Assembly (NCBI GenBank): GCA_002701765.1
Contig: NZXB01000002.1
Location: forward strand, 1 to 11,864
Length of the DNA: 11,864 bases
Direction: 5' to 3'
Source: Porticoccaceae bacterium
GTDB taxonomy: Bacteria; Pseudomonadota; Gammaproteobacteria; Pseudomonadales; Porticoccaceae
Every line of letters starts with the position of its first letter. Position 1 is the stretch's first letter. Positions 1-10,292 of this stretch are shown piece by piece. Below the pieces are notes generated by a model, which was given only the letters and a program-made list of their open reading frames with translations, did not search any database and was not told the origin of the DNA. Both the position numbers and the translations under genes were made by a program.

Positions 1-77
1 CAACCAGTGGTACAACAAGATGCTTGTTATTGATTTAGCGTCAAAAAAGTCATTAAAAACAGTATGATATAAAGTTG

Positions 78-100
78 TTCGACTCCTACCTCTTCCGCCA
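78..100 (+). other. tRNA 3'-end remnant (serine-like), possible integration site core
   Basis: The bases read in order as a T-loop (TTCGACT, 78-84), the 3' half of a T-stem (CCTAC, 85-89), the 3' half of an acceptor stem (CTCTTCC, 90-96), a discriminator G (97) and an encoded CCA (98-100). That is exactly the geometry of the last 23 bases of a tRNA gene, and a G discriminator fits tRNA-Ser. The 5' partner strands are absent: no GTAGG precedes the T-loop and no GGAAGAG acceptor lies upstream in the window, so this is not a working tRNA. Fragments of this kind are typically left where tyrosine recombinases insert elements into tRNA genes. The final 14 bases recur at 10279-10292. No integrase is visible, so the attachment-site role is inference. 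Confidence 0.5.
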
Positions 101-383: not shown

Positions 384-1400
384 ATGCAGCCAATTCGGTT
401 GGGGATAATGGGCTTTGGACGCGTTGGGCGTCAGCTATATCAGTTGGCGGTTCAGGATGAGAGGTTTGACGTTGTGGCAATATCTGATATCGGTATTGCT
501 GGGATATTACACAACCTTCTAACTAAAACCGATCATGACCTTGATGTAAATCTGGAAAATAACTACCTAGTGAGTGAAAGAGGTCGAACGCGTTTGATGT
601 CCATAAATAGGCCAACCGAAACTCCTTGGGATGTATTCGAAGTTGATGTCGTAATCGAAGCTACGGGACGTTTCTGTCAGCTAGCAGATTTGACTCCACA
701 CATAGAAAACGGTGCGGCCCGTGTGGTGCTCTCTGCGTTGCCAGAGGAGGAGATAGATCGGGTCATTCTCTATGGTGTTAACGAGGCAGATGCAAGTGCG
801 GCTGATCAAATTATTTCCGCTGGTTCTGCATCTACAACAGCGACCGCTTTAGCGTTGAAGATAATCACGGATGCATTTGCCGTTGAGCAAGCAACCATGA
901 CCTCGGTACACGCTTATACCAGTGACCAAAGTCTGCAAGATTACGCTGGTCCAGATTATCGGCGGAGTCGCTCGGGCGCTAAAAACATTATCCCAAACGT
1001 AACTCCTGCGCTGCACTGGGTCCAGAAAGTGCTTCCTGAATTGGACGGTAAATTGACCGCCTATGCCCTCAATGTCCCGGTTCAGGTAGGCTCGATGCTA
1101 GATCTTACGATAGCTTTCAGTGAACCTGATATTGACGAAGATGCTCTTAATCAACTATTTATCAATGCCGAAAAAGAGAGGCCTGAATTGTTTAAAACTA
1201 CGGATGACCCCATTGTCTCCTCAGATGTGAAAGGAATACACCAAAGTTTGCTAGTCGATTTGCTTGGAACGATGAAGGCGGGTGATCGAATGATGAAGAT
1301 GCTGGGGTGGCATGAAACACTGGGACACTCAAAGCGAATCTTGGATGTGGTTGGCGTCTATGCGGATCTGGGGTATCACTCAAAAAAGGAGACCTTCTAA
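384..1400 (+). CDS. GAPDH-fold protein lacking the catalytic cysteine (probable pseudoenzyme)
   Basis: This 338-residue protein aligns along its whole length with glyceraldehyde-3-phosphate dehydrogenase, including the NAD-binding GFGRVG loop (11-16), DQIIS (141-145), the VHAYT histidine motif (His176) and RRSRSGAKNIIP (193-204). The catalytic cysteine of SNASCTTN is replaced: the segment reads SAGSASTT, with Ala149 at the cysteine position. The phosphate-binding arginine of RVPVP is Asn230, the TG of STGAAKA is Thr207-Pro208, and the C-terminal NEWGYSN motif is degraded to ETLGHSK. It therefore cannot carry out the normal thioester chemistry. It is not a decaying pseudogene: the frame is intact, it has an excellent ribosome binding site, and it is the first gene of an operon with an active GAPDH one base downstream. 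Likely roles are a regulatory or structural partner in mixed tetramers, or binding of another ligand; both are inference. Confidence 0.93.
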   Translation: MQPIRLGIMGFGRVGRQLYQLAVQDERFDVVAISDIGIAGILHNLLTKTDHDLDVNLENNYLVSERGRTRLMSINRPTETPWDVFEVDVVIEATGRFCQLADLTPHIENGAARVVLSALPEEEIDRVILYGVNEADASAADQIISAGSASTTATALALKIITDAFAVEQATMTSVHAYTSDQSLQDYAGPDYRRSRSGAKNIIPNVTPALHWVQKVLPELDGKLTAYALNVPVQVGSMLDLTIAFSEPDIDEDALNQLFINAEKERPELFKTTDDPIVSSDVKGIHQSLLVDLLGTMKAGDRMMKMLGWHETLGHSKRILDVVGVYADLGYHSKKETF

Positions 1401-1401
1401 A

Positions 1402-2400
1402 ATGCGAATTGCTATAAATGGATTTGGTCGCATTGGGCGCGCAGTATTTAGAATTGCGGAGGTCGATGATGATATCGAGATTGTTGCCGTGAATGACTTA
1501 TTCGATAACGAGGCACTTCGCTATCTCCTTTTGTATGATACCGTGATGGGCCGGTTTGAAGGGGAAGTGAATATAGAGAATGATCAGTTGGTGACGTCAC
1601 GTTCAAGGGTGACTATGTTTGCGGAAAGAGATCCTGCAAATCTGCCATGGGGTGATTTGGGCATTGATGCGGTAGTGGAATCGACAGGCGTCTTTCGTAG
1701 TCGGGGTGAAGTTGGTAAGCATATTCAAGCAGGCGCCGCCCGCGCGCTGCTCACGGTTCCAGCAAAAGATGAGATTGACTACACAGTGGTTCTTGGAGTC
1801 AATGAGGACGGACTATGCTCGGATCACCAGATCATTTCAAATGCAAGTTGTACCACAAATTGCCTGGCGCCAGTGGCAAAGGTGCTGAATGATGAATTTG
1901 GGATTCGGGAAGGTGTCATCAATACTGTGCATGCTTACACGAACGATCAGAGCTTGGCAGATGTCCCTCACTCAGATTGGCGAAGGAGTCGAGCAGCGGC
2001 AGAAAACATTATCCCAACTTCAACTGGCGCTGCTAAAGCCGTCGGAGAGGTACTGCCTGAACTAAAGGGAAAGCTGGATGGTATTGCATCTCGTGTCCCA
2101 GTTCCAGACGGGTCAGTGGTTGACTTGTTTGTTGAATTAGAGACTGAAGTCGATGTCGTTAGAGTTCACGAAGTGATGCAAGCTGCGGCTGCTTCCGATA
2201 GAATGAAGGGTGTGCTTGAATTTACGCAAGAACCCATTGTTTCCTCCGACATTATCGGAAATTCCCACTCATCAATTTATGATGCATCCTTTACTCAGGT
2301 ATCGGGTAAAAAATTTCTCAAAGCACTGAGTTGGTACGATAACGAATGGGGTTATTCTAATCGTGTGTGTGATGTACTCAGAATGATGTCGGGTCTTTAG
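1402..2400 (+). CDS. gap: Type I glyceraldehyde-3-phosphate dehydrogenase
   Basis: A 332-residue cytoplasmic enzyme of normal family length. It oxidises glyceraldehyde 3-phosphate to 1,3-bisphosphoglycerate in glycolysis and gluconeogenesis. All key features are present: NGFGRIGR (6-13) for NAD, Asp32 in AVNDLFD pointing to NAD rather than NADP, SNASCTTN with catalytic Cys150, TVHAYTNDQ with His177, TSTGAAKAVG (206-215) and Arg231 of RVPVPDGS for phosphate binding, and WYDNEWGYSNR (311-321). The ATG at 1402 is chosen over an upstream in-frame one at 1312 because the first 30 codons of the longer frame overlap the preceding gene and are unlike GAPDH, whereas AAAAAGGAG sits 9 bases before 1402. 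It lies one base after the cysteine-less paralogue, so the two are translationally coupled. An erythrose-4-phosphate dehydrogenase is the main alternative, but the motifs favour GAPDH. Confidence 0.95.
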   Translation: MRIAINGFGRIGRAVFRIAEVDDDIEIVAVNDLFDNEALRYLLLYDTVMGRFEGEVNIENDQLVTSRSRVTMFAERDPANLPWGDLGIDAVVESTGVFRSRGEVGKHIQAGAARALLTVPAKDEIDYTVVLGVNEDGLCSDHQIISNASCTTNCLAPVAKVLNDEFGIREGVINTVHAYTNDQSLADVPHSDWRRSRAAAENIIPTSTGAAKAVGEVLPELKGKLDGIASRVPVPDGSVVDLFVELETEVDVVRVHEVMQAAAASDRMKGVLEFTQEPIVSSDIIGNSHSSIYDASFTQVSGKKFLKALSWYDNEWGYSNRVCDVLRMMSGL

Positions 2401-3339: not shown

Positions 3340-3736
3340 CTTCGGTATCCTCGGTTCGCTTTGTGGTCAGCAAGTGAGACGCAAAACCCCTGCCACGCGA
3401 TAAGAGTATATGATGTTATATAGTTATGCGTATCATGCATGAATAAAATTGTTGGTTAAGGTCACGAAATAATTGAATTATTTTTGAATGAACAAGAGCA
3501 ATGCATATTTTGCAGCCACCAGCGCTTGGCATTGACCCGTAGAAAAGCCCATGCTGCTGTTAACGATATGCCCTAAGATGCGCGGATATGGCTGTCAAAT
3601 CGCGCACCATGCACTAGACCAGCACACATTTTTGAGCGCCCATAGGTCCGAGATAATTGGTTCTATAAAATTACTCTCTGCCAGCCGGTTGTCATTTTCG
3701 AAGCCTACAAACAATAAAAATAATCAACCAAGAACC
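3340..3736. other. Divergent intergenic region between lipoprotein and nuclease genes
   Basis: This should contain promoters for both flanking genes, but no strong -35/-10 pair was found. The sequence at 3408-3440 is AT-rich with TATA-like blocks on both strands. The nuclease reading frame stays open back to an ATG at 3551, but the 62 codons of that extension do not look like protein and have no ribosome binding site, so they are treated as non-coding here. Confidence 0.45.
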
Positions 3737-4255
3737 ATGAACAACTCTGCTCAGACGTGGTTCGCAACAGAGTTAAAACTGGCAATTAAAGATGCTAATG
3801 ACGTTATACAGTATGCTGCCAATAAAGAGGATTTGTTAGATGGACAAAAAATCATTATGCCACCATCTTCTTTTGTGCTGGAAAAACATCTTGAGGATTA
3901 CATCTGTAGGAACTGGGAAACCACAATTTTTGGTGGCGACTTCAACATTTATGAAAATGGAAGACAGTATCAAACAAATACTGGTCCACTTGATATTCTT
4001 GCGAAAAGAAAAGATGAAACGGAATTCCTGATTTTAGAACTTAAAAGGGACTTGGCCAGTGATGCAGTTGTTGGACAAACATTGAATTATATGGGTTATG
4101 TTAAGCAACATCTCGCGACTAACGGCGAAAAGGTCAGGGGTTGCATTATTGCAACAGATGCAGGCCAACGTTTGAGAAACGCACTGTCAACAGTCACTAA
4201 CATCGATTTTTATCAATACAAAATTAATTTTCAAATGAACCATGTTGAAATATGA
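3737..4255 (+). CDS. NucS/DUF91-like PD-(D/E)XK nuclease domain protein
   Basis: From the ATG at 3737 the product is 172 residues. Residues about 50-165 match the C-terminal nuclease domain of the NucS/DUF91 group: LEDYICRNW (52-60), a GR..T..G strand (75-83), then the catalytic set Asp86 in GPLDILA, Glu101-x-Lys103 in LILELKRD, and Gln114 in VGQTLNYMGYV. It probably cuts DNA, perhaps branched or mismatched; whether it acts in repair or defence cannot be told. The short helical N-terminus (1-50) is unlike the DNA-binding domain of full NucS, so this is a single-domain member. An upstream in-frame ATG at 3551 would give 234 residues, but the extra part looks non-coding; neither start has a strong ribosome binding site, so 5' truncation of a longer gene is possible. 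A truncated copy of the 57-bp repeat begins about 32 bases after the stop. Confidence 0.82.
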   Translation: MNNSAQTWFATELKLAIKDANDVIQYAANKEDLLDGQKIIMPPSSFVLEKHLEDYICRNWETTIFGGDFNIYENGRQYQTNTGPLDILAKRKDETEFLILELKRDLASDAVVGQTLNYMGYVKQHLATNGEKVRGCIIATDAGQRLRNALSTVTNIDFYQYKINFQMNHVEI

Positions 4256-4287: not shown

Positions 4288-4326
4288 CCCTCTTTTTTGT
4301 ATCTGCCAAGTTACATACACATTAAC
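4288..4326 (+). repeat. Dispersed 57-bp repeat, copy A (3' truncated)
   Basis: The left 35 bases (4288-4322, from CCCTC plus T6 through the GTATCTGCCAAG and TTACATACACAT blocks) are identical to copy E at 10072-10106. Similarity stops at about 4326, where the element's ACAGGTGTC half should follow; instead the sequence continues as CTTCCGCCATATT (4326-4338), which is identical to 92-104, the tRNA-end remnant. It lies between the stop codons of the convergent nuclease and 86-residue ORF. Confidence 0.85.
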
Positions 4327-4358
4327 TTCCGCCATATTCGGGAGTTGACCCAAGGCCG

Positions 4359-4619
4359 TCAATCGCTTGTTTGGACCGCTCCAACTAGCGTTTTCTCATT
4401 GCTCTGACCCGAAACCTCGCGCTCTTTCCCAATGACTAGATCCGCTACTTCGTCAGTTGGTACCGCAAAGTCTACAACTTCATAACTGTCAAATTTTTCG
4501 CCTTTGGATTGAGCTATGATTTTATGTATTTCGAGTAATTCGATGCCAAATAAAGTTTCTAATTCGTTCGCCTTTACCTGGGACCCATATTTGCGACGCA
4601 TTTCGTTTTTTAAATTCAT
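4359..4619 (-). CDS. Hypothetical protein, 86 residues
   Basis: The product starts MNLKNEMRRKYGSQ, is charged, contains a probable helical first half (ELETLFGIELLEIHKIIAQ, about 20-38) and a more acidic second half, and has no signal peptide or membrane segment. No family is recognised. A weak GAG site lies about 9 bases upstream of the ATG on the minus strand. Amino acid use looks protein-like (balanced, few rare residues), which is the main reason to keep it. It converges on the nuclease gene with copy A of the repeat between them. It could be a remnant of a longer protein. Confidence 0.42.
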   Translation of the reverse strand: MNLKNEMRRKYGSQVKANELETLFGIELLEIHKIIAQSKGEKFDSYEVVDFAVPTDEVADLVIGKEREVSGQSNEKTLVGAVQTSD

Positions 4620-4760
4620 AAATGTAATCTCATTTAGCTATAATTTTTAAAAATATGAATGTTGGATTTCGCGTTTTTCTCAGCGGCTTGGCGAGATTAG
4701 ACCTTCTAGTTCGATTCAAATTACTTTAAATGTAAACACGTATATCTTAGTCCCTGCATT

Positions 4761-4806
4761 TCTCGTGCCAATGGTACGTCATCCTCACAACTAGTGTCTC
4801 CTTCAA
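4761..4806 (+). repeat. Possible degenerate sixth copy of the dispersed repeat
   Basis: The sequence has TGCCAAtGGTAC (4765-4776) against TGCCAAGGTAC of the repeat, and then keeps the exact 26-base spacing from GTAC to a terminal GTGTCT block, matching 16 of those 26 positions. It is in the same orientation as the other copies. The similarity is weak enough that chance cannot be excluded. Confidence 0.28.
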
Positions 4807-4874
4807 CATTGCAGCTATCAAAAGTGTTGTCTGTGTTTTAAATTCGTCCTTTTTTGGGGCAAGTCTCTTTTATT

Positions 4875-4904
4875 CGCCCTTCTTGAGGGCGCCATTATGC
4901 GCCC
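4875..4904 (+). promoter_or_regulatory. Two mutually exclusive hairpins in the antiporter leader
   Basis: CGCCCT (4875-4880) pairs with AGGGCG (4886-4891) over a TCTTG loop; GGGCGC (4887-4892) pairs with GCGCCC (4899-4904) over CATTAT. Both are perfect 6-bp, GC-rich stems and they share bases 4887-4891, so only one can form at a time. This is the arrangement used by attenuators and ion- or ligand-responsive leaders. There is no T-run after the second stem, so a translational or anti-termination role, if any, is inference. It sits about 155 bases before the chosen antiporter start. Confidence 0.35.
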
Positions 4905-5058
4905 GCAGCAATGACTGGAGTTTATCTATTTAAAAACACATTTCTTTTGCGGCTTTGGAGATATAATAGAAATCTTAACCCAATCATTGTCTAAATCTGA
5001 TCCATGTTATGCCGAACCTTTAAACCAGCTGTCCATTTTCCTGTACAAAGGCATGCCC

Positions 5059-6225
5059 ATGCATCATGAACTGATCCAAACTTTCTTTTATGTTTTTACC
5101 GGTGGCGCAGTGCTCGCATCGCTAGCACTTTTTGGAAGACAGCCCTTGCTTCTTGCCTACATTGGTCTTGGTGTATTGATTGGTCCTCATGGTATTGGCC
5201 TAGTATCGGATCAATCAATAATTTCGCAGGGAGCAGAAATTGGGATCATCTTTCTTCTTTTTTTATTAGGCCTTGAGATGCATCCGCATAAGCTGCTGAC
5301 GGTGCTTCGTGAAGTTACTCAAGTTTCTTTGGCGAGTTCTTTTTTATTTGGATTATTGGGCTTCTCAGTATCTTATGCGTTTGATTTTAAACTTTTGGAG
5401 AGCGCAATTATCGGATCTACTATGATGTTCTCGAGCACAATCATTGGTATAAAACTGTTGCCTGCAGATGAACTTCATCACAAACACTCGGGCGAATTGG
5501 TCATAGGCATTTTGTTGATTCAAGATTTTGTCGCAATATTTGTGCTGGTTGCTTTACTCGTCGATCCAGCGGACACCTCTTATTTTACGCAGTTCGCATA
5601 TTCTTTGCTTAGTTTACCGGTGCTAGTTGTATTTGCTGTAATTGTATTTCAGAAAATACTGCGGCCTCTCTTTTCTAAGTTTGAAAAAATTGGAGAATAT
5701 ATATTCCTTGTAGCCATTGGTTGGTGCCTAGGAATGGCTGAGGCTTCCGCCTCTCTTGGGCTGTCTCGAGAGATCGGGGCGTTTATAGCGGGGATATCGA
5801 TGGCGACCTCTAATTTTTCAGAACACATCGCGTTGAATTTGAAACCAGTTAGAGACTTCTTCCTTATATTATTCTTTTTTTCTCTAGGCAGCGGTTTTGA
5901 GCTTAATCTGATGGCGGAAATTTGGCTTATTTCTCTGGTCATGAGTGTGTTAGTGATGGCAGTGAAACCGGTTGTTTTGCACTATCTTTTGAGGTCAGAA
6001 AGAGAATCAAACAGCCTTTCTTGGGATATTGGTTTCCGATTGGGGCAAAACAGTGAATTTTCACTTTTGATCGCTTTTGTGGCATCTAATGCAGGTTTTA
6101 TAGACGAAAGAGCATCTCATGTTATTCAGGCAGTGACTATCATCACCTTTATAATATCAAGCTATATAATCATCTATAACTTTCCGAGTCCGATCTCTGC
6201 AGTTCAGGAGGTGCGTCACGATTGA
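5059..6225 (+). CDS. Kef-type (CPA2) cation:proton antiporter, membrane domain only
   Basis: A 388-residue inner-membrane protein with about 12 hydrophobic segments. It matches the monovalent cation:proton antiporter-2 family: GVLIGPHGIG (38-47), FLLFLLGLEM (65-74), the intramembrane Gln155-Asp156 pair in ILLIQDFVAIF typical of KefB/KefC, EIGAFIAGISMA (238-249), RDFFLILFFFSLG (265-277) and the NSEFSLLIAF helix (331-340). It likely exchanges K+ or Na+ for H+. KefB/KefC are about 600 residues with a C-terminal TrkA-N/RCK domain; here the protein ends soon after the last helix, so it lacks nucleotide or glutathione gating. The ATG at 5059 is preferred because AAAGG (5047-5051) lies 7 bases upstream; ATG 5053 and a TTG at 4987 in frame are alternatives that add only a hydrophilic stretch. 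No partner gene is adjacent. Confidence 0.92.
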   Translation: MHHELIQTFFYVFTGGAVLASLALFGRQPLLLAYIGLGVLIGPHGIGLVSDQSIISQGAEIGIIFLLFLLGLEMHPHKLLTVLREVTQVSLASSFLFGLLGFSVSYAFDFKLLESAIIGSTMMFSSTIIGIKLLPADELHHKHSGELVIGILLIQDFVAIFVLVALLVDPADTSYFTQFAYSLLSLPVLVVFAVIVFQKILRPLFSKFEKIGEYIFLVAIGWCLGMAEASASLGLSREIGAFIAGISMATSNFSEHIALNLKPVRDFFLILFFFSLGSGFELNLMAEIWLISLVMSVLVMAVKPVVLHYLLRSERESNSLSWDIGFRLGQNSEFSLLIAFVASNAGFIDERASHVIQAVTIITFIISSYIIIYNFPSPISAVQEVRHD

Positions 6226-6385
6226 AGAATTGGGGGGGCTGTGGCTTACTAACTCTTAAATTAGTGAAGTCCGCGGTAATCGTTATGCAAAGTGTTTCTT
6301 GGGCAGATTAGTGATTTCGAGGTTAATTTGAAAGTAAGAAACCTTTTTTACACGTTTGAGCGCAGAAAATTCGTTCTATTGCTCC

Positions 6386-6544
6386 ATGGAATCAGTTAAC
6401 CAAAGTATCATATCTGAGGATTACGCAAAGGAAACTACAGAACTCGCAAGAACCCAGATCATTCAACAAGCTGCTATGGCGATGTTAACTTAGGCTAATC
6501 AGCAAACAGAGCAAATACTGGAATTACTGAAGTCTGTCGATTAA
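6386..6544 (+). pseudogene. Flagellin C-terminal (D0 domain) remnant with in-frame amber codon
   Basis: The frame reads a typical flagellin C-terminus: DYAKETTELARTQ, IIQQAAMAMLT, then TAG (6491-6493), then ANQQTEQILELLKSVD and TAA (6542-6544). Flagellins have a glutamine at the TAG position (AMLAQANQ), so the stop is a single C-to-T change of CAG. Upstream of about 6386 the frame loses flagellin likeness and meets a stop at 6335, and the ATG at 6386 has no ribosome binding site. This is therefore the stranded 3' end of a flagellin gene, not a small gene. D0 normally packs in the filament core and carries the export/assembly region. Copy B of the dispersed repeat starts immediately after the TAA. 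Confidence 0.8.
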
Positions 6545-6546
6545 CC

Positions 6547-6597
6547 TTTTTTGTTTGTGCCGAGGTACATACGCATAGATACAGGTTGTCCCAGGGA
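6547..6597 (+). repeat. Dispersed repeat, copy B (most diverged)
   Basis: T6 run, GTTTGTGCCGAGG, TACATACGCAT, AGATACAGG, then TTGTCCC. It aligns with the other copies over its full length but lacks four bases (GTCT region: GGTGTCTTGTCCC reads GGTTGTCCC) and ends CCCAGGG instead of CCCATGG. It begins two bases after the flagellin remnant's stop codon and ends 43 bases beyond the 3' end of the minus-strand hydrolase gene. Confidence 0.85.
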
Positions 6598-6640
6598 GCA
6601 TGAGTTTTCACTCATTGAGCCCCACAGCATATGGAACAGG

Positions 6641-7600
6641 CTACTCTTCTATCCGGTGGGTGAGGCTCATAAACGCGCGATTTATAAATTGTTTGTTGTC
6701 GCCCAAACCGTCATCCCACTCTGCCGTGATACCCGCAGAGAGGACGTCCTCTAGCGAGGAGCCTGCTTTTATCATCCTGGTGATTCGGTCTCGAACTTTT
6801 TTTAACATCAAAACGTAGTCTACCAACTCATCGTAATTGCTAATTGGGCCATGTCCTGGAATTACGAGTGTGTCCTGATTTATTTCTTCGATTACTTTCG
6901 TTAAAAAATAAATAACGCCATCTATTGAGCCGCCATTGCGAGCATCAATGAATGGATAAAACCCTTTCATGTAGAGATCCCCTAAGTGGATGACGTTACT
7001 TTCTTGAAATAGAATTGCGGCATCGCCTGTTGTATGAGCAGCTCCAAAATGCATTAGACGAATGTCCTCATTGTTGAAGTGAAGTATCATTTCATCATCA
7101 AAAGTAATCTGTGGCAGTGCGTTAATGGGGTACGCAGGTTGTATGTAGGACATGTAAACTAAGTTAATCAAATTATCTGACTTCATCATATCGCGTGAGT
7201 TGGTATGGGAGATAATGACTGATTCAGTTTTGCCCAGTGCGATATTGCCGTCCGCATGATCCCAGTGCCAGTGCGTATTTATGACAAAGTCAATTTTTTC
7301 GCCACCTAAGTTTGTAATTTGGTCTAGAATCCGAGGGATTAGTTCCGATGCCTGATTATCTACGATCACCGTTCCATCAGACCCTATACTAGCGGCAACA
7401 TTGCCGCCAAATCCTTCTAGCATATACAGTCCATTGCGTAACTTCCGAGTCTTTATAGGAATATGGTAAGTCCAGCCAAGTTGCTTCAACATAGATGCTT
7501 TATCGATCGGCTTTGGTGTAGGTGAGCCGTCATGTGAAATCGCGCTGGGCATTGCTAAGATTAGTAAGAAGAACAAAGGGAAACGACTATTTTTGATCAT
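6641..7600 (-). CDS. Secreted metallo-beta-lactamase-fold hydrolase
   Basis: A 319-residue periplasmic protein with a Sec signal peptide (basic start, hydrophobic FPLFFLLILAMPSA, cleavage probably near residue 22). The metal-binding set of the MBL superfamily is complete: His110, His112, Asp114 and His115 in THWHWDHADGN, His189 in FGAAHTTGD, Asp208 in HLGDLYM, and His250 in IPGHGP. The arrangement resembles the periplasmic group related to subclass B3 beta-lactamases and QuiP/SoxH-type proteins rather than glyoxalase II. The substrate is unknown; lactone, ester or beta-lactam hydrolysis are options and none can be chosen from sequence. The C-terminal 65 residues are helical. AGG lies 8 bases before the ATG on the minus strand. 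It is the only reversed gene in the repeat-bounded block and stands alone between copies B and C. Confidence 0.92.
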   Translation of the reverse strand: MIKNSRFPLFFLLILAMPSAISHDGSPTPKPIDKASMLKQLGWTYHIPIKTRKLRNGLYMLEGFGGNVAASIGSDGTVIVDNQASELIPRILDQITNLGGEKIDFVINTHWHWDHADGNIALGKTESVIISHTNSRDMMKSDNLINLVYMSYIQPAYPINALPQITFDDEMILHFNNEDIRLMHFGAAHTTGDAAILFQESNVIHLGDLYMKGFYPFIDARNGGSIDGVIYFLTKVIEEINQDTLVIPGHGPISNYDELVDYVLMLKKVRDRITRMIKAGSSLEDVLSAGITAEWDDGLGDNKQFINRAFMSLTHRIEE

Positions 7601-7911
7601 TTATAAAACCTGTCGCTTTGGTGATTTAAAATTATTCAAAATTGATCTTTTCGGCAATACTACTGCATGTTGTTCAGATAGAGCAATCGCAAGAATCGGA
7701 TGTTTAACAATTCCGTAAAGTCGTTCAAACGAGAGTCCATTTTTTTGTATCTGCCAAGGTACATACATTTAAACAGAGGTGTCTTGTCCCATGGGGGGAA
7801 GAGCTGGCGTCAGCGACTGGTTTCTCGACGTCTTTCTTTCCAATTATTAGGTTTTTCTCATTTATTTCCGCATAATCGAATAACAAGTTAATTTAAAGAG
7901 GAGTAACTGAT
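7601..7911. other. Divergent intergenic region carrying repeat copy C
   Basis: It separates the start of the minus-strand hydrolase from the start of the ABM-like gene and must hold promoters for both. No strong consensus promoter was found; on the minus strand TTGCCG followed about 15-16 bases later by an AATAAT block is a weak candidate for the hydrolase. Copy C of the repeat occupies 7741-7797. A 63-codon open frame across it (7700-7891) has no protein character. Confidence 0.45.
7741..7797 (+). repeat. Dispersed repeat, copy C
   Basis: Full-length copy: T6, GTATCTGCCAAGGTACATAC (a 20-base near-palindrome), ATTTAAACAGAGG, TGTCTTGTCCC, ATGGGGG. It differs from copy D at about five positions. 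It is the only copy in a region between two gene starts rather than after a gene end on its own strand. Confidence 0.92.
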
Positions 7912-8211
7912 ATGACAGTTAGCGTTTTAGTCGAGGGAACATTGAAAGATGGCGAGAGAGACGGCTTTACAGCATCATCCAAGGAAAATTTTAAGGTAAC
8001 TCGCACTTTTGCTGGATTCCAGACGATAGACCTTACTTATAATGTAGAAGACCCAAACAACTGGGTGATCACCGAACTTTGGGATTCTAAAGAGGACTAC
8101 GAAAAATATCTTCAGTTTAGGCAAGAGGATGGAACCTTTGATGAGGTGGTATCCGTTTGCACCGAATTACCTTCAGTGAGGATTTTTGATATCGTGGATG
8201 CATCCTCCTAA
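7912..8211 (+). CDS. ABM-like (antibiotic biosynthesis monooxygenase superfamily) small protein
   Basis: A 99-residue cytoplasmic protein with the ferredoxin-like dimeric alpha/beta-barrel pattern: strand VSVLVEGTLK (3-12), helix ERDGFTASSKENFKVTRT (15-32), GFQTIDLTYN (35-44), WVITELWDSKEDYEKYLQFRQ (51-71) with the characteristic ELW-D-S-x-EDY-x-KY motif, and a final strand. Relatives include YgiN-type quinol monooxygenases and stress-induced monooxygenases, which act without cofactors; the reaction here cannot be told. AAAGAGGAG (7895-7903) lies 8 bases before the ATG. The stop codon overlaps the next start (TAATG), so the two genes form a coupled operon between repeat copies C and D. Confidence 0.85.
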   Translation: MTVSVLVEGTLKDGERDGFTASSKENFKVTRTFAGFQTIDLTYNVEDPNNWVITELWDSKEDYEKYLQFRQEDGTFDEVVSVCTELPSVRIFDIVDASS

Positions 8212-8606
8212 TGGGTAACTTCTTCGTACCGAATGAGGCTGAGTTCAGGACAATCGAAGAAATTGCCGCCAGTGATTCAGATTGCTCAGTTGTAATGATG
8301 AATCTCAATACATACTCTGAGGAAGCTGGATATCCAGATGGGCTGCCATACTCTGATTGGATGAAAGTGTTGGACGTATTGATTAAGCAAGCGGGGGGTA
8401 AGAAGTTATGGCAACTTCCAGTGATGGGTCAACCAATAGGTAATCAAGATTTAGATGAAATAATTGCTGTATGGTACCCGTCGCATCAAGCATTTCTATC
8501 AATTACTCAACAACCGGCTAGCGAGGAAAACTTTAGATTACGAAATTTATGCGTAAAGTATGCTGTGCTCCACAGATGTCCGGGTGACGTGATCGCTCTG
8601 AGTTGA
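8211..8606 (+). CDS. DUF1330-like small protein, coupled to the ABM-like gene
   Basis: A 131-residue cytoplasmic protein with the DUF1330 pattern of the same dimeric alpha/beta-barrel superfamily: VVMMNLNTYS (27-36), then YSDWMKVLDVLIKQAGGKKLW (47-67, corresponding to the family's Y-x(n)-GG-x-x-LW), IGNQDLDEIIAVWYPSHQAFLSI (76-98) with the YPS-x-x-AFL motif, and a C-terminal strand around AVLHRCPGDV. Function of the family is unknown. Its ATG overlaps the preceding TAA and there is no separate Shine-Dalgarno site, so it depends on translation of the ABM-like gene. Having two members of the same fold in one operon suggests a hetero-oligomer or two steps on one small-molecule substrate; this is inference. 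Confidence 0.83.
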   Translation: MGNFFVPNEAEFRTIEEIAASDSDCSVVMMNLNTYSEEAGYPDGLPYSDWMKVLDVLIKQAGGKKLWQLPVMGQPIGNQDLDEIIAVWYPSHQAFLSITQQPASEENFRLRNLCVKYAVLHRCPGDVIALS

Positions 8607-8909
8607 AATCCAGTTTAAACCGACTGTCAGAAACTGCTGCAACTGACGTCGATGGCAGGGTTACTTGATATTGTTTTTTGTATCTGCCGAGGTACATACA
8701 CATAAACACAGGTGTCTTGTCCCATGGAGGATAAATGCTTTAAAGTCATATTAGGACAACTCGGACAAAAGGCCTCGTTTTATCCTTTTTTATGTGGATA
8801 GTTTAGGGCTCGAACCGTTTAGTGTTTCACTCTAAACACCAGCACTGGAGATATGTATCTCTCACAAAACTTCAATTTTAAAAATATTTCTAGGGCTTAG
8901 GCACATTCA
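8607..8909. other. Intergenic region between the ABM/DUF1330 operon and the sugar dehydrogenase
   Basis: It contains repeat copy D (8674-8730) and an imperfect hairpin at 8817-8837: GTTTAG pairs with CTAAAC, then a T-T mismatch and an inner GT/AC pair over a TTC loop. There is no T-run after it, so it is not a clear intrinsic terminator. No promoter consensus stands out. No gene is seen. Confidence 0.5.
8674..8730 (+). repeat. Dispersed repeat, copy D
   Basis: Full-length copy: T6, GTATCTGCCGAGG, TACATACACATAAACACAGG, TGTCTTGTCCC, ATGGAGG. It differs from copy E at only three positions over 57 bases. It starts 68 bases after the DUF1330-like stop codon. Confidence 0.93.
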
Positions 8910-10061
8910 ATGATTAATTTGTCTCGAACTCTCGTGCTTCTTGCGCTAATTTTTTTTTCATTGACGCTATATTCAGAAGACAATGAACAGCCGTTTCTAG
9001 TTACCCCCACTGCACAATTCGATGCGCCGTGGGCGTTGGAGTTTTTACCAGACGGCAAAATGCTTATCAGTGAGATGGGTGGGACACTGAAACTGGTAGA
9101 CCAGAATGGAGTATTTCTGCATGAGATAACCGGAGTTCCAGACGTGGTTTTTAAAGGGCAAGGAGGTATGGGTGATATCAAAATACATCCTCGTTTTGAG
9201 CGAAACCGGCTGGTATATCTTAGTTATGCAGAAAAGGGTGAGAATGATTTGCTTGGCACTGCAGTAGCGCGCGCACGATTGGTAGTTGAAGACAACATCG
9301 GTCATTTAGAGCGACTAGAGGTAATCTGGAGACAGACTAAAGTCGAAGGATATGGTCACTATGGGCAACGTATAGTATTTGGGCCTGAAGGGTATCTGTG
9401 GATAAGTTCTGGTGATAGACAAAGAGCTGATCCAGCTCAAGATATGACATCAAACCTAGGCAAAATTGTTAGATTAAGTGACGACGGCTCACTGCCAGCC
9501 GGTAATCCATTCCCATCCTCACACGCGGTTACCTCTCAGGTTTGGTCGCTTGGTCACAGAAATCCGCTTGGCCTATCATTTGATAAATCCGGAAGGCTTT
9601 GGGTAGTGGAAATGGGACCTCGGGGTGGTGATGAATTGAATTTAGTTCGTCGAGGTGCGAATTATGGTTACCCAATCGTGTCAAATGGCTCTCACTATAG
9701 TTTTCTACCAATACCAGATCATGATACCAGGCATGAGTTTTATCCGCCGGAGATAACGTGGACTCCTGTTATTTCGCCTTCATCTATGATTTTTTATCAA
9801 GGCAGGGAGTTTCCGGAGTGGCAGCAGAATGCTCTGATTGGAGGGTTATCATCAAATGCCATTGTCAGAGTCGAGCTAAAAGGTGACAGAGCGAGAGAGG
9901 TTGAGCGATTTGAGATGGGCGAGAGAATCAGAGCAATCCGTCAAAGCACTGATGGAGTGATTTGGGTTCTGGAGGATGGCAGACCACCACAATTTGGAAA
10001 GGGGTGGGAACAAGGCGGTGGGCGTCTCCTGAAGTTAACTGCTGCTACTGAAAAAAATTGA
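8910..10061 (+). CDS. Secreted PQQ-dependent sugar dehydrogenase (glucose/sorbosone dehydrogenase family)
   Basis: A 383-residue periplasmic protein with a hydrophobic signal peptide (TLVLLALIFFSLTLYS, cleavage near 22) followed by a six-bladed propeller of the GSDH family. Family motifs in order: FDAPWALEFLPDGKMLISE (37-55), GQGGMGDIKIHP (84-94), GHYGQRIVFGPEGYLWISSGDR (149-170) with His150 at the position of the catalytic base and the SGDR of blade 3, NLGKIVRL (182-189), SLGHRNPLGLSF (213-224) with Arg217 expected to contact PQQ, and MGPRGGDELN (235-244). It would oxidise an aldose or related polyol to the lactone and pass electrons to the respiratory chain. The usual EHGPRGGDE has Met in place of the His. 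No PQQ synthesis gene is in the window. TTAGG (8897-8901) lies 8 bases before the ATG. Single gene between repeat copies D and E. Confidence 0.92.
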   Translation: MINLSRTLVLLALIFFSLTLYSEDNEQPFLVTPTAQFDAPWALEFLPDGKMLISEMGGTLKLVDQNGVFLHEITGVPDVVFKGQGGMGDIKIHPRFERNRLVYLSYAEKGENDLLGTAVARARLVVEDNIGHLERLEVIWRQTKVEGYGHYGQRIVFGPEGYLWISSGDRQRADPAQDMTSNLGKIVRLSDDGSLPAGNPFPSSHAVTSQVWSLGHRNPLGLSFDKSGRLWVVEMGPRGGDELNLVRRGANYGYPIVSNGSHYSFLPIPDHDTRHEFYPPEITWTPVISPSSMIFYQGREFPEWQQNALIGGLSSNAIVRVELKGDRAREVERFEMGERIRAIRQSTDGVIWVLEDGRPPQFGKGWEQGGGRLLKLTAATEKN

Positions 10062-10076
10062 TAAATGTAACCCCTC

Positions 10077-10133
10077 TTTTTTGTATCTGCCAAGTTACAT
10101 ACACATAAACACAGGTGTCTTGTCCCATGGGGG
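10077..10133 (+). repeat. Dispersed repeat, copy E
   Basis: Full-length copy: T6, GTATCTGCCAAGT, TACATACACATAAACACAGG, TGTCTTGTCCC, ATGGGGG. It shares a CCCTC extension on the left with copy A, giving 35 identical bases, so A and E form a subfamily distinguished by AAGTTAC instead of AGGTAC. It begins 15 bases after the sugar dehydrogenase stop codon. Confidence 0.93.
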
Positions 10134-10272: not shown

Positions 10273-10292
10273 GGCGGATACCTCTTCCGCCA
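10273..10292 (+). repeat. Short copy of the tRNA 3' end inside an inverted repeat
   Basis: TACCTCTTCCGCCA (10279-10292) is identical to 87-100, the last 14 bases of the tRNA-end remnant, in the same orientation. In addition GGCGGA (10273-10278) pairs perfectly with TCCGCC (10286-10291) across a 7-base loop. A 14-base match is close to chance for a 12-kb window, so the pairing of the two sites as left and right junctions of an insertion is only a suggestion. Confidence 0.3.

What the first reader, a model, noticed from the sequence alone, without database searches (positions are those of the whole stretch)
4288..10133. A five-copy, same-orientation intergenic repeat family of about 57 bp
Five copies (4288-4326, 6547-6597, 7741-7797, 8674-8730, 10077-10133) all lie on the plus strand, all outside genes. 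The architecture is constant: T6 run, near-palindrome, ACACAGG-TGTCTTGTCCC block, CCATGG-type end. D and E differ at 3 of 57 positions, C by about 5 more, B carries a 4-base deletion, A is cut short. The gradient of divergence means repeated dispersal over time, not one recent duplication. I do not recognise the family. Possible natures are a REP/RAYT-type element, a non-autonomous mobile element, or a recombination site.
Basis: seen in the sequence. Interest (0 to 1): 0.75.

Follow-up and report, generated by a model that had tools for sequence, protein, structure and literature searches.

The report
Cassette-junction repeat in marine tRNA islands
A 57-base DNA sequence marks the joints between swappable gene cassettes that pile up beside tRNA genes in some ocean bacteria; it looks like a recombination site that resembles integron sites in logic but not in structure.

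Summary
The five repeats are real, all on the + strand and outside genes. A profile finds 37 copies (two doubtful) in 13 stretches from four Porticoccaceae (SAR92-type) genomes. The element was found in 4 of 14 genus genomes and 4 of 112 family genomes; no phage or plasmid record matches most of its length.

It fails the tests made for REP and integron attC. Copies sit in cargo arrays at tRNA genes (Sec, Phe, two Leu; Met inferred), in the tRNA's orientation on 6 of 6 contigs. Six of six testable stray tRNA 3' ends with at most 2 mismatches (Sec, Met, Leu) lie 114-152 bases downstream of a copy; three weaker ones do too.

Each copy joins mostly unlinked sequences. Of 53 copy pairs with a related flank, 51 share one side only. 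Homology blocks end at elements 31 of 182 times (3.6 expected), and in close pairs linkage changes inside the element. Cargo recurs in arrays at different tRNAs.

Best reading: a polar cassette-exchange site at the distal end of tRNA-targeting units. Against it: 26 of 35 copies show no tRNA remnant, and no recombinase is identified.

The parts
4293..4326 (+). element copy A, positions 1-34 only, cut off
   Evidence: profile 27.2 bits, E 4.9e-7
4326..4338 (+). 13 bases equal to the tRNA-Sec 3' end plus its flank, directly at the end of truncated copy A; possible tRNA-Sec remnant
   Evidence: seen in sequence and compared by eye with tRNA-Sec and its flank; too short for the scan and not counted there
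6547..6597 (+). element copy B, 4-base internal deletion
   Evidence: profile 35.5 bits; upstream flank related to that of L033:12681
7741..7797 (+). element copy C
   Evidence: profile 64.3 bits; downstream flank shared with L035:10940, upstream flank not
8674..8730 (+). element copy D
   Evidence: profile 67.4 bits; upstream flank related to that of L035:11777
10077..10133 (+). element copy E, last before the tRNA-Sec remnant
   Evidence: profile 68.5 bits; the 18-nt remnant window starts 142 bases downstream
10279..10292 (+). tRNA-Sec 3'-end remnant, attR-like
   Evidence: 14 nt identical to the tRNA-Sec end; 3 mismatches over 18 nt
77..100 (+). tRNA-Sec 3'-end remnant, attR-like, 24 nt exact; the place where an element would lie is off the contig
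8910..10061 (+). cargo: glucose/sorbosone dehydrogenase (PF07995), in a block 94.7% identical to cargo of the tRNA-Leu(gag) array G009:C14
7912..8606 (+). cargo pair: ABM-domain protein and a protein without Pfam match, also behind an element at the tRNA-Leu(taa) array G009:C33
6641..7600 (-). cargo: metallo-beta-lactamase-fold protein (PF00753)
4987..6225 (+). cargo: sodium/hydrogen exchanger family (PF00999); part of it 78.9% identical to G009:C3 DNA beyond that contig's last listed element

Best explanation
The 57-bp element is a polar junction site of small cargo cassettes in tRNA-anchored additive islands of a SAR92-type genus. Units integrate at the 3' end of tRNA genes. The distal end of a unit carries element, then a right arm of about 110-150 bp, then a copy of the tRNA 3' end (shown as architecture for nine copies). 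Units accrete, and further exchange occurs within the element, which lets the same cargo be joined to different right arms and so turn up at different tRNA genes (exchange shown by flank mosaicism; retargeting inferred). I infer that a site-specific recombinase acts on the element in double-stranded form; it is not identified. Shown: positions, polarity, tRNA remnants, mosaic flanks, cargo shared between arrays at different tRNAs. Inferred: a circular intermediate, the enzyme and the exact crossover point.
For: On the 8 contigs with two or more copies all 33 copies at E 0.01 or less share one strand (31 on 7 contigs without the two doubtful copies). On 6 of 6 contigs with an intact tRNA at the array the element has the tRNA's orientation and lies 3' of it. 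Stray tRNA 3' ends with at most 2 mismatches in 18: seven, of which 6 of 6 testable (Sec 3, Met 2, Leu-gag 1) lie 114-152 bp downstream of a copy on the same strand; three rounds of shuffled sequence gave none that good. One-sided flank sharing: 34 upstream-only, 17 downstream-only, 2 both; 8 of 9 multi-copy upstream families join more than one downstream family, and 8 of 9 the reverse. Homology-block ends in elements: 31 of 182 against 3.6 expected, maximum 14 in 5000 rotations. In the closest pairs upstream linkage is best ended at position 23 (11-35 within 2 log units), downstream linkage begins at 44-48. A 7.8-kb cargo 97% identical at tRNA-Leu(taa) in G000:C22 and before a tRNA-Leu(gag) remnant in G007:C77 shows differences from element position 13 on.
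Against: 26 of 35 testable copies have no detectable tRNA remnant (mean score 8.65 against 8.44 shuffled), among them some of the best-conserved copies. No recombinase for the element is known; by the family search only one element-bearing contig (G009:C3) carries an integrase. The two linkage switches do not coincide, and the downstream linkage beats no linkage by only 3.9 log units over 12 pairs, so a fixed crossover point is not shown; over all pairs element halves show no clear linkage. All four genomes are drafts broken into contigs, and one junction (L031:1-99) may be an assembly end artefact. Below threshold (E 0.03-0.2) one of four further weak hits lies on the opposite strand, L032:9586.
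Confidence: 0.5

Rival explanations
1. The element is a cis signal used to move the units (packaging site of a helper phage, transfer origin or replication site). It is kept by selection, and mosaic flanks come from occasional illegitimate or homologous exchange, not from a dedicated recombinase.
For: The same element occurs at arrays of several tRNAs, while three integrases near tRNAs in these genomes have three different domain make-ups. It sits at the distal end near attR-like remnants. No recombinase of its own was found.
Against: No match in IMG/VR with three patterns and one chance hit with a fourth; none covering 80% of the query in phages or plasmids. Several well-conserved copies have no tRNA end behind them. 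Imperfect 57-bp repeats are short for homologous recombination (established knowledge). Relaxases and terminases were not searched for in these genomes.
Confidence: 0.27
2. The element is an arm-type or accessory binding site of the tRNA-specific integrases, part of attP.
For: Fixed side and fairly fixed distance from the attachment core (110-152 bp over nine remnants).
Against: The integrases differ in domain make-up: DUF6538 type at tRNA-Sec (G009:C3), Arm-DNA-bind_3 with Phage_int_M at tRNA-Met (G005:C66), and a short SAM-like type behind tRNA-Cys (G005:C37), where relatives have tRNA-Leu(taa). The Sec-type integrase has no full-length match among the 14 genus genomes besides itself. Many copies have no core nearby. 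Only the Sec integrase lies on an element-bearing contig, so the other two may serve other islands.
Confidence: 0.13
3. A REP/RAYT or MITE-like element that transposes on its own into intergenic DNA.
For: Short, repeated, intergenic, graded divergence.
Against: No Y1 transposase found in 4 of 4 genomes; no hairpin; one strand per contig; no copy in 13 other stretches, about 175 kb, of the same four genomes, chosen around integrases and array ends; one-sided flank sharing.
Confidence: 0.03
4. A divergent integron with attC-like sites.
For: Array logic: co-oriented sites with one or a few genes between them.
Against: 0 of 37 copies hold both attC boxes on one strand and none a GTTRRRY box (boxes recalled); no stem-loop; integron integrase model over cut-off in 0 of 4 genomes, with weak sub-cut-off hits in 2 and no over-cut-off control; ORFs of 120 aa or more in the 12 other stretches lie 23 with and 28 against the element.
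Confidence: 0.02

Closest known systems
tRNA/tmRNA-anchored additive islands with repeated RNA-gene 3' ends (Dehalococcoides ssrA islands, PMC3146451; Methylophilaceae fGI-2, PMC10872708; passages seen)
   Same: Islands next to an RNA gene with recurring copies of its end; in Dehalococcoides tandem modules downstream of ssrA, cargo and integration modules with discordant histories, and a further conserved 15-bp motif next to the repeat.
   Different: Here the conserved motif is 57 bp, lies 110-152 bp from the core, is common to arrays at several tRNAs, also occurs without a detectable tRNA remnant, and is itself the point where flanks change.
Tycheposons / VEIMEs (known here only from passages of PMC10872708 and PMC10803314; the primary papers were not held)
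   Same: Marine, tRNA-anchored, tyrosine recombinase beside the tRNA (here on one element-bearing contig), metabolic cargo.
   Different: No terminase or capsid family appeared among the 30 proteins scanned (three of them integrases, one with a helicase domain). I cannot say whether tycheposons carry such an element.
Integron cassette arrays (attC), PMC2727003, passages seen
   Same: Co-oriented sites between short cargo units; mix-and-match cassettes.
   Different: No attC boxes, no hairpin, no integron integrase over cut-off, no gene-orientation bias.
p-dif modules of Acinetobacter plasmids (recalled, no call)
   Same: Gene modules bounded by short recombination sites without a recombinase of their own.
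   Different: 28-bp Xer sites on plasmids (recalled); the element was not compared with Xer sites in any call.

Membership tests
tRNA-anchored additive island (tycheposon-like) | copies of the tRNA 3' end at unit boundaries | tested here: met
   seven stray tRNA 3' ends with at most 2 mismatches in the 13 element-bearing stretches, 6 of 6 testable behind an element; three weaker ones also
tRNA-anchored additive island (tycheposon-like) | tyrosine recombinase next to the tRNA | tested here: inconclusive
   met at tRNA-Sec in G009:C3; not on the other element-bearing contigs; G005:C66 has one beside tRNA-Met, but joining it to array contig C55 is inference
tRNA-anchored additive island (tycheposon-like) | excision, packaging or transfer of units | not testable with these tools
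   needs reads or experiments
integron | attC with R' and R'' boxes and a folded bottom strand | tested here: not met
   0 of 37 with both boxes; no consensus pair; DNA fold z -0.20 to 0.74 for two copies, both strands; RNA-parameter fold of 30 copies averaged z -0.87 and -1.19 against simple shuffles
integron | IntI integrase | tested here: not met
   0 of 4 genomes over cut-off; none of the 14 control genomes was over cut-off either
REP/RAYT | Y1 (RAYT) transposase in the genome | tested here: not met
   0 of 4 genomes, control positive in 5 of 14; genomes 68-92% complete
REP/RAYT | palindromic hairpin | tested here: not met
   no consensus pair in 29 copies; z from -0.20 to 0.74
MITE | both flanks of an insertion continuous at an empty site, target duplication | tested here: inconclusive
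   51 of 53 related pairs share one flank only, which speaks against it; empty sites and target duplications were not searched for
Xer/dif-type module | XerC and XerD binding arms around a 6-bp spacer | not tested
   no dif site of this genus was compared

The most novel reading that the evidence does not exclude
A cassette system distinct from integrons: a 57-bp double-stranded recombination site, unrelated to attC, by which small metabolic cassettes are exchanged between islands at different tRNA genes, so that cargo can be swapped onto a new right arm and retargeted to another tRNA.
Probability: 0.3. Interest if true: 0.85.

Novelty: new variant of a known kind. Interest (0 to 1): 0.6.

Why it matters
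Abundant ocean bacteria with small genomes are thought to carry few integrons (recalled), yet differ widely in metabolic cargo. A defined, searchable site that marks cassette joints and tRNA-island ends would let one count cassettes, find their boundaries in metagenomes and test how cargo moves between tRNA sites.

Tried and rejected
Rfam scan of the window: only a sub-threshold match taken as chance. RNA or ssDNA structure: none supported. Viral relatives: three patterns gave 0 hits; a relaxed pattern gave one contig that the profile does not support. Phage and plasmid BLAST: only short pieces, at most 41% of the query. Decayed tRNA ends behind the other 26 testable copies: not above shuffled level, so 'every copy once had one' is not shown. 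At 3-4 mismatches one search lists 34 distinct places outside intact tRNAs and the seven good remnants; I kept three (window 10292, L033:2026, L037:693) because they lie behind an element and dropped 31 as chance, none of which has an element within 400 bp upstream. Element-negative relatives: 8 tRNA-Sec stretches (42.7 kb, some very short) show no element and no extra tRNA-Sec end. A near-palindrome test was first run out of register and repeated. Position-wise identity over all one-sided pairs showed no clear linkage; only the closest pairs (8 of 34 upstream, 12 of 17 downstream, chosen by flank identity of at least 0.75 and 0.70) did. In one search a fifth genome (G029) had a 24-base match; it is not among the four and I do not count it. 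A tRNA-Met gene on G009:C14, about 11.6 kb beyond the far side of that array, was not counted as an array tRNA.
Full report
Observation. The window (contig C101 of a 2.07-Mb, 104-contig draft, 78.6% complete) holds five co-oriented copies of a 57-bp sequence. Relatives of the same genus carry it too. A profile built from copies C, D and E and iterated finds 37 copies at E of 0.01 or less in 13 stretches (12 contigs) from four genomes. Two of these (L028:7271 and L036:7749, about 19 bits, in one shared 7.8-kb block) are doubtful. Information averages 1.00 bit per position inside the 57 bp, 0.23 in the ten bases before, 0.15 in the 13 after, and 0.04-0.06 further out; the inside value is somewhat inflated because the profile chose the copies. 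By a sequence-only model 4 of 14 genus genomes have it: G009 15, G000 10, G005 6, G007 2 matches. By BLAST 4 of 112 family genomes have it. A scan of GTDB contigs with a 20-base pattern found two records, both titled Porticoccaceae: AG-905-B21 (its contig length equals that of G009:C3) and MAG SP98 92765 (that of G005:C48). That SAR92 belongs to this family, and that the AG- code suggests a single-cell genome, is recalled.

Setting. Elements cluster in arrays and were not found in 13 other stretches of these four genomes, about 175 kb, chosen around integrases and array ends. The 33 copies on the 8 contigs with two or more share one strand within each contig; random strands would do so with probability 2^-25 (2^-23 without the doubtful copies). 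Below threshold (E 0.03-0.2) four more weak hits occur, one on the opposite strand (L032:9586). Six contigs have an intact tRNA at the array: Sec (G000:C24, G009:C3), Leu-taa (G000:C22, G009:C33), Phe (G000:C13) and Leu-gag (G009:C14). In 6 of 6 the element has the tRNA's orientation and lies on its 3' side.

tRNA ends. Using 3' tails of tRNAs found on the fetched loci, one search finds seven stray tRNA 3' ends with at most 2 mismatches in 18: Sec four, Met two, Leu-gag one. Three rounds of simple shuffling gave none that good, 6 at 3 mismatches and 57 at 4. Six of these seven are testable, and 6 of 6 have an element 114-152 bp upstream on the same strand; the seventh (window 77-100) is too near the contig start. 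Among 34 further places at 3-4 mismatches, three lie 110-149 bp behind an element (window 10279-10292, L033:2026, L037:693, the last Phe-like) and 31 have no element within 400 bp. I take the three as remnants because of that position, so they are not independent evidence. In G009:C3 three ends (one of them weak) divide the array into segments, each ending with an element. The reverse does not hold: 26 of 35 testable copies have no detectable tRNA end, including strong ones such as L033:16156 and window C and D.

Mosaic joints. I compared 100-bp flanks of all 37 copies (666 pairs, not independent). 34 pairs share only the upstream flank, 17 only the downstream flank, 2 both, 613 neither. One of the two 'both' pairs is the doubtful pair. 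Flank families form a connected network holding 29 flank types; 8 of 9 multi-copy upstream families and 7 of 9 downstream families span more than one tRNA locus, counting loci that are only inferred. Ends of homology blocks of at least 150 bp fall in elements (with 10 bp either side) 31 of 182 times against 3.6 expected, maximum 14 in 5000 rotations; 25 of 37 copies have such an end. Because copies are alike, a block can run through the element before stopping, so the exact position of block ends says little. Position-wise identity over all one-sided pairs shows no clear linkage. In the closest pairs upstream linkage is best ended at position 23 (11-35 within 2 log units; gain 9.1 over no linkage, 21.8 over full linkage, 8 pairs) and downstream linkage begins at 44-48 (gain 3.9 over no linkage, 48.6 over full linkage, 12 pairs). 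This places the change within the element but does not fix one point.

Cargo. The same cargo recurs in arrays at different tRNAs (families): a 7.8-kb block with an AcrB-family pump (Leu-taa in G000, before a Leu-gag end in G007, 97%); peptidyl-arginine deiminase-like (Phe in G000, Sec in G009, 92%); glucose/sorbosone dehydrogenase (Sec in the window, Leu-gag in G009, 95%); ABM pair (Sec in the window, Leu-taa in G009, 90%); SMP-30/gluconolactonase-like (Met in G000, Sec in G009, 90%); a protein with a sub-cut-off PhoD match (Leu-taa in G000, Sec in G009, 88%). The window, G000:C66 and G007:C77 are assigned by tRNA remnants alone. In the 12 stretches other than the window, ORFs of at least 120 aa lie 23 with and 28 against the element.

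Recombinases. Three integrases near tRNAs have three different domain make-ups. By the family search only G009:C3 has one on an element-bearing contig. The Sec-type integrase has no full-length match in the 14 genus genomes besides itself. No integron integrase over cut-off was found in the four genomes (two have weak hits; no control genome was over cut-off either), and no Y1 transposase. The genomes are 68-92% complete.

Reading. The element works like a cassette-junction site: polar, at the distal end of tRNA-targeting units, and the place where unrelated flanks meet. It fails the tests made for integron and REP; MITE is disfavoured. It fits the general kind of tRNA/tmRNA-anchored additive islands. 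The nearest described case I saw is the Dehalococcoides ssrA islands, with a 15-bp motif beside each repeat and discordant cargo and integration modules (PMC3146451, passages). I did not find this element in print: searches for tycheposon, VEIME, additive flexible islands, SAR92 with genomic islands, and tandem accretion were seen as listings, with passages of PMC10872708, PMC10803314, PMC3146451 and PMC2727003. No search was made for the element's letters in papers. The primary tycheposon and VEIME papers were not held, so a similar feature there cannot be excluded.

Noticed in passing
L031:1-99 (G000:C24): The element at 100-156 is followed by 90 bases identical to the inside of the window's second GAPDH-like gene (window 2254-2343): a real junction or an assembly end artefact.
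   Followed up: partly
window 3551-4255: Protein matches PADLOC candidate defence family PDC-S02 (E 1.9e-52), inside the array.
   Followed up: no
window 384-2400: Two adjacent, diverged GAPDH-like genes inside the tRNA-Sec island (naming is my reading of the translations).
   Followed up: no
L034:4438-12687 (G009:C3): The unit next to tRNA-Sec carries the DUF6538 integrase, a Sel1-repeat protein and a helicase-domain protein, unlike the metabolic genes further out.
   Followed up: partly
downstream of elements, e.g. L033:16156, L030:9167, L033:12681: The first 50 bp or so after the element fall into a few families, some with a TTTAAC/GTTAAA-like pair; they may be arm sites.
   Followed up: no
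L034:8391-8881: Internal repeats within a Sel1-repeat gene.
   Followed up: no
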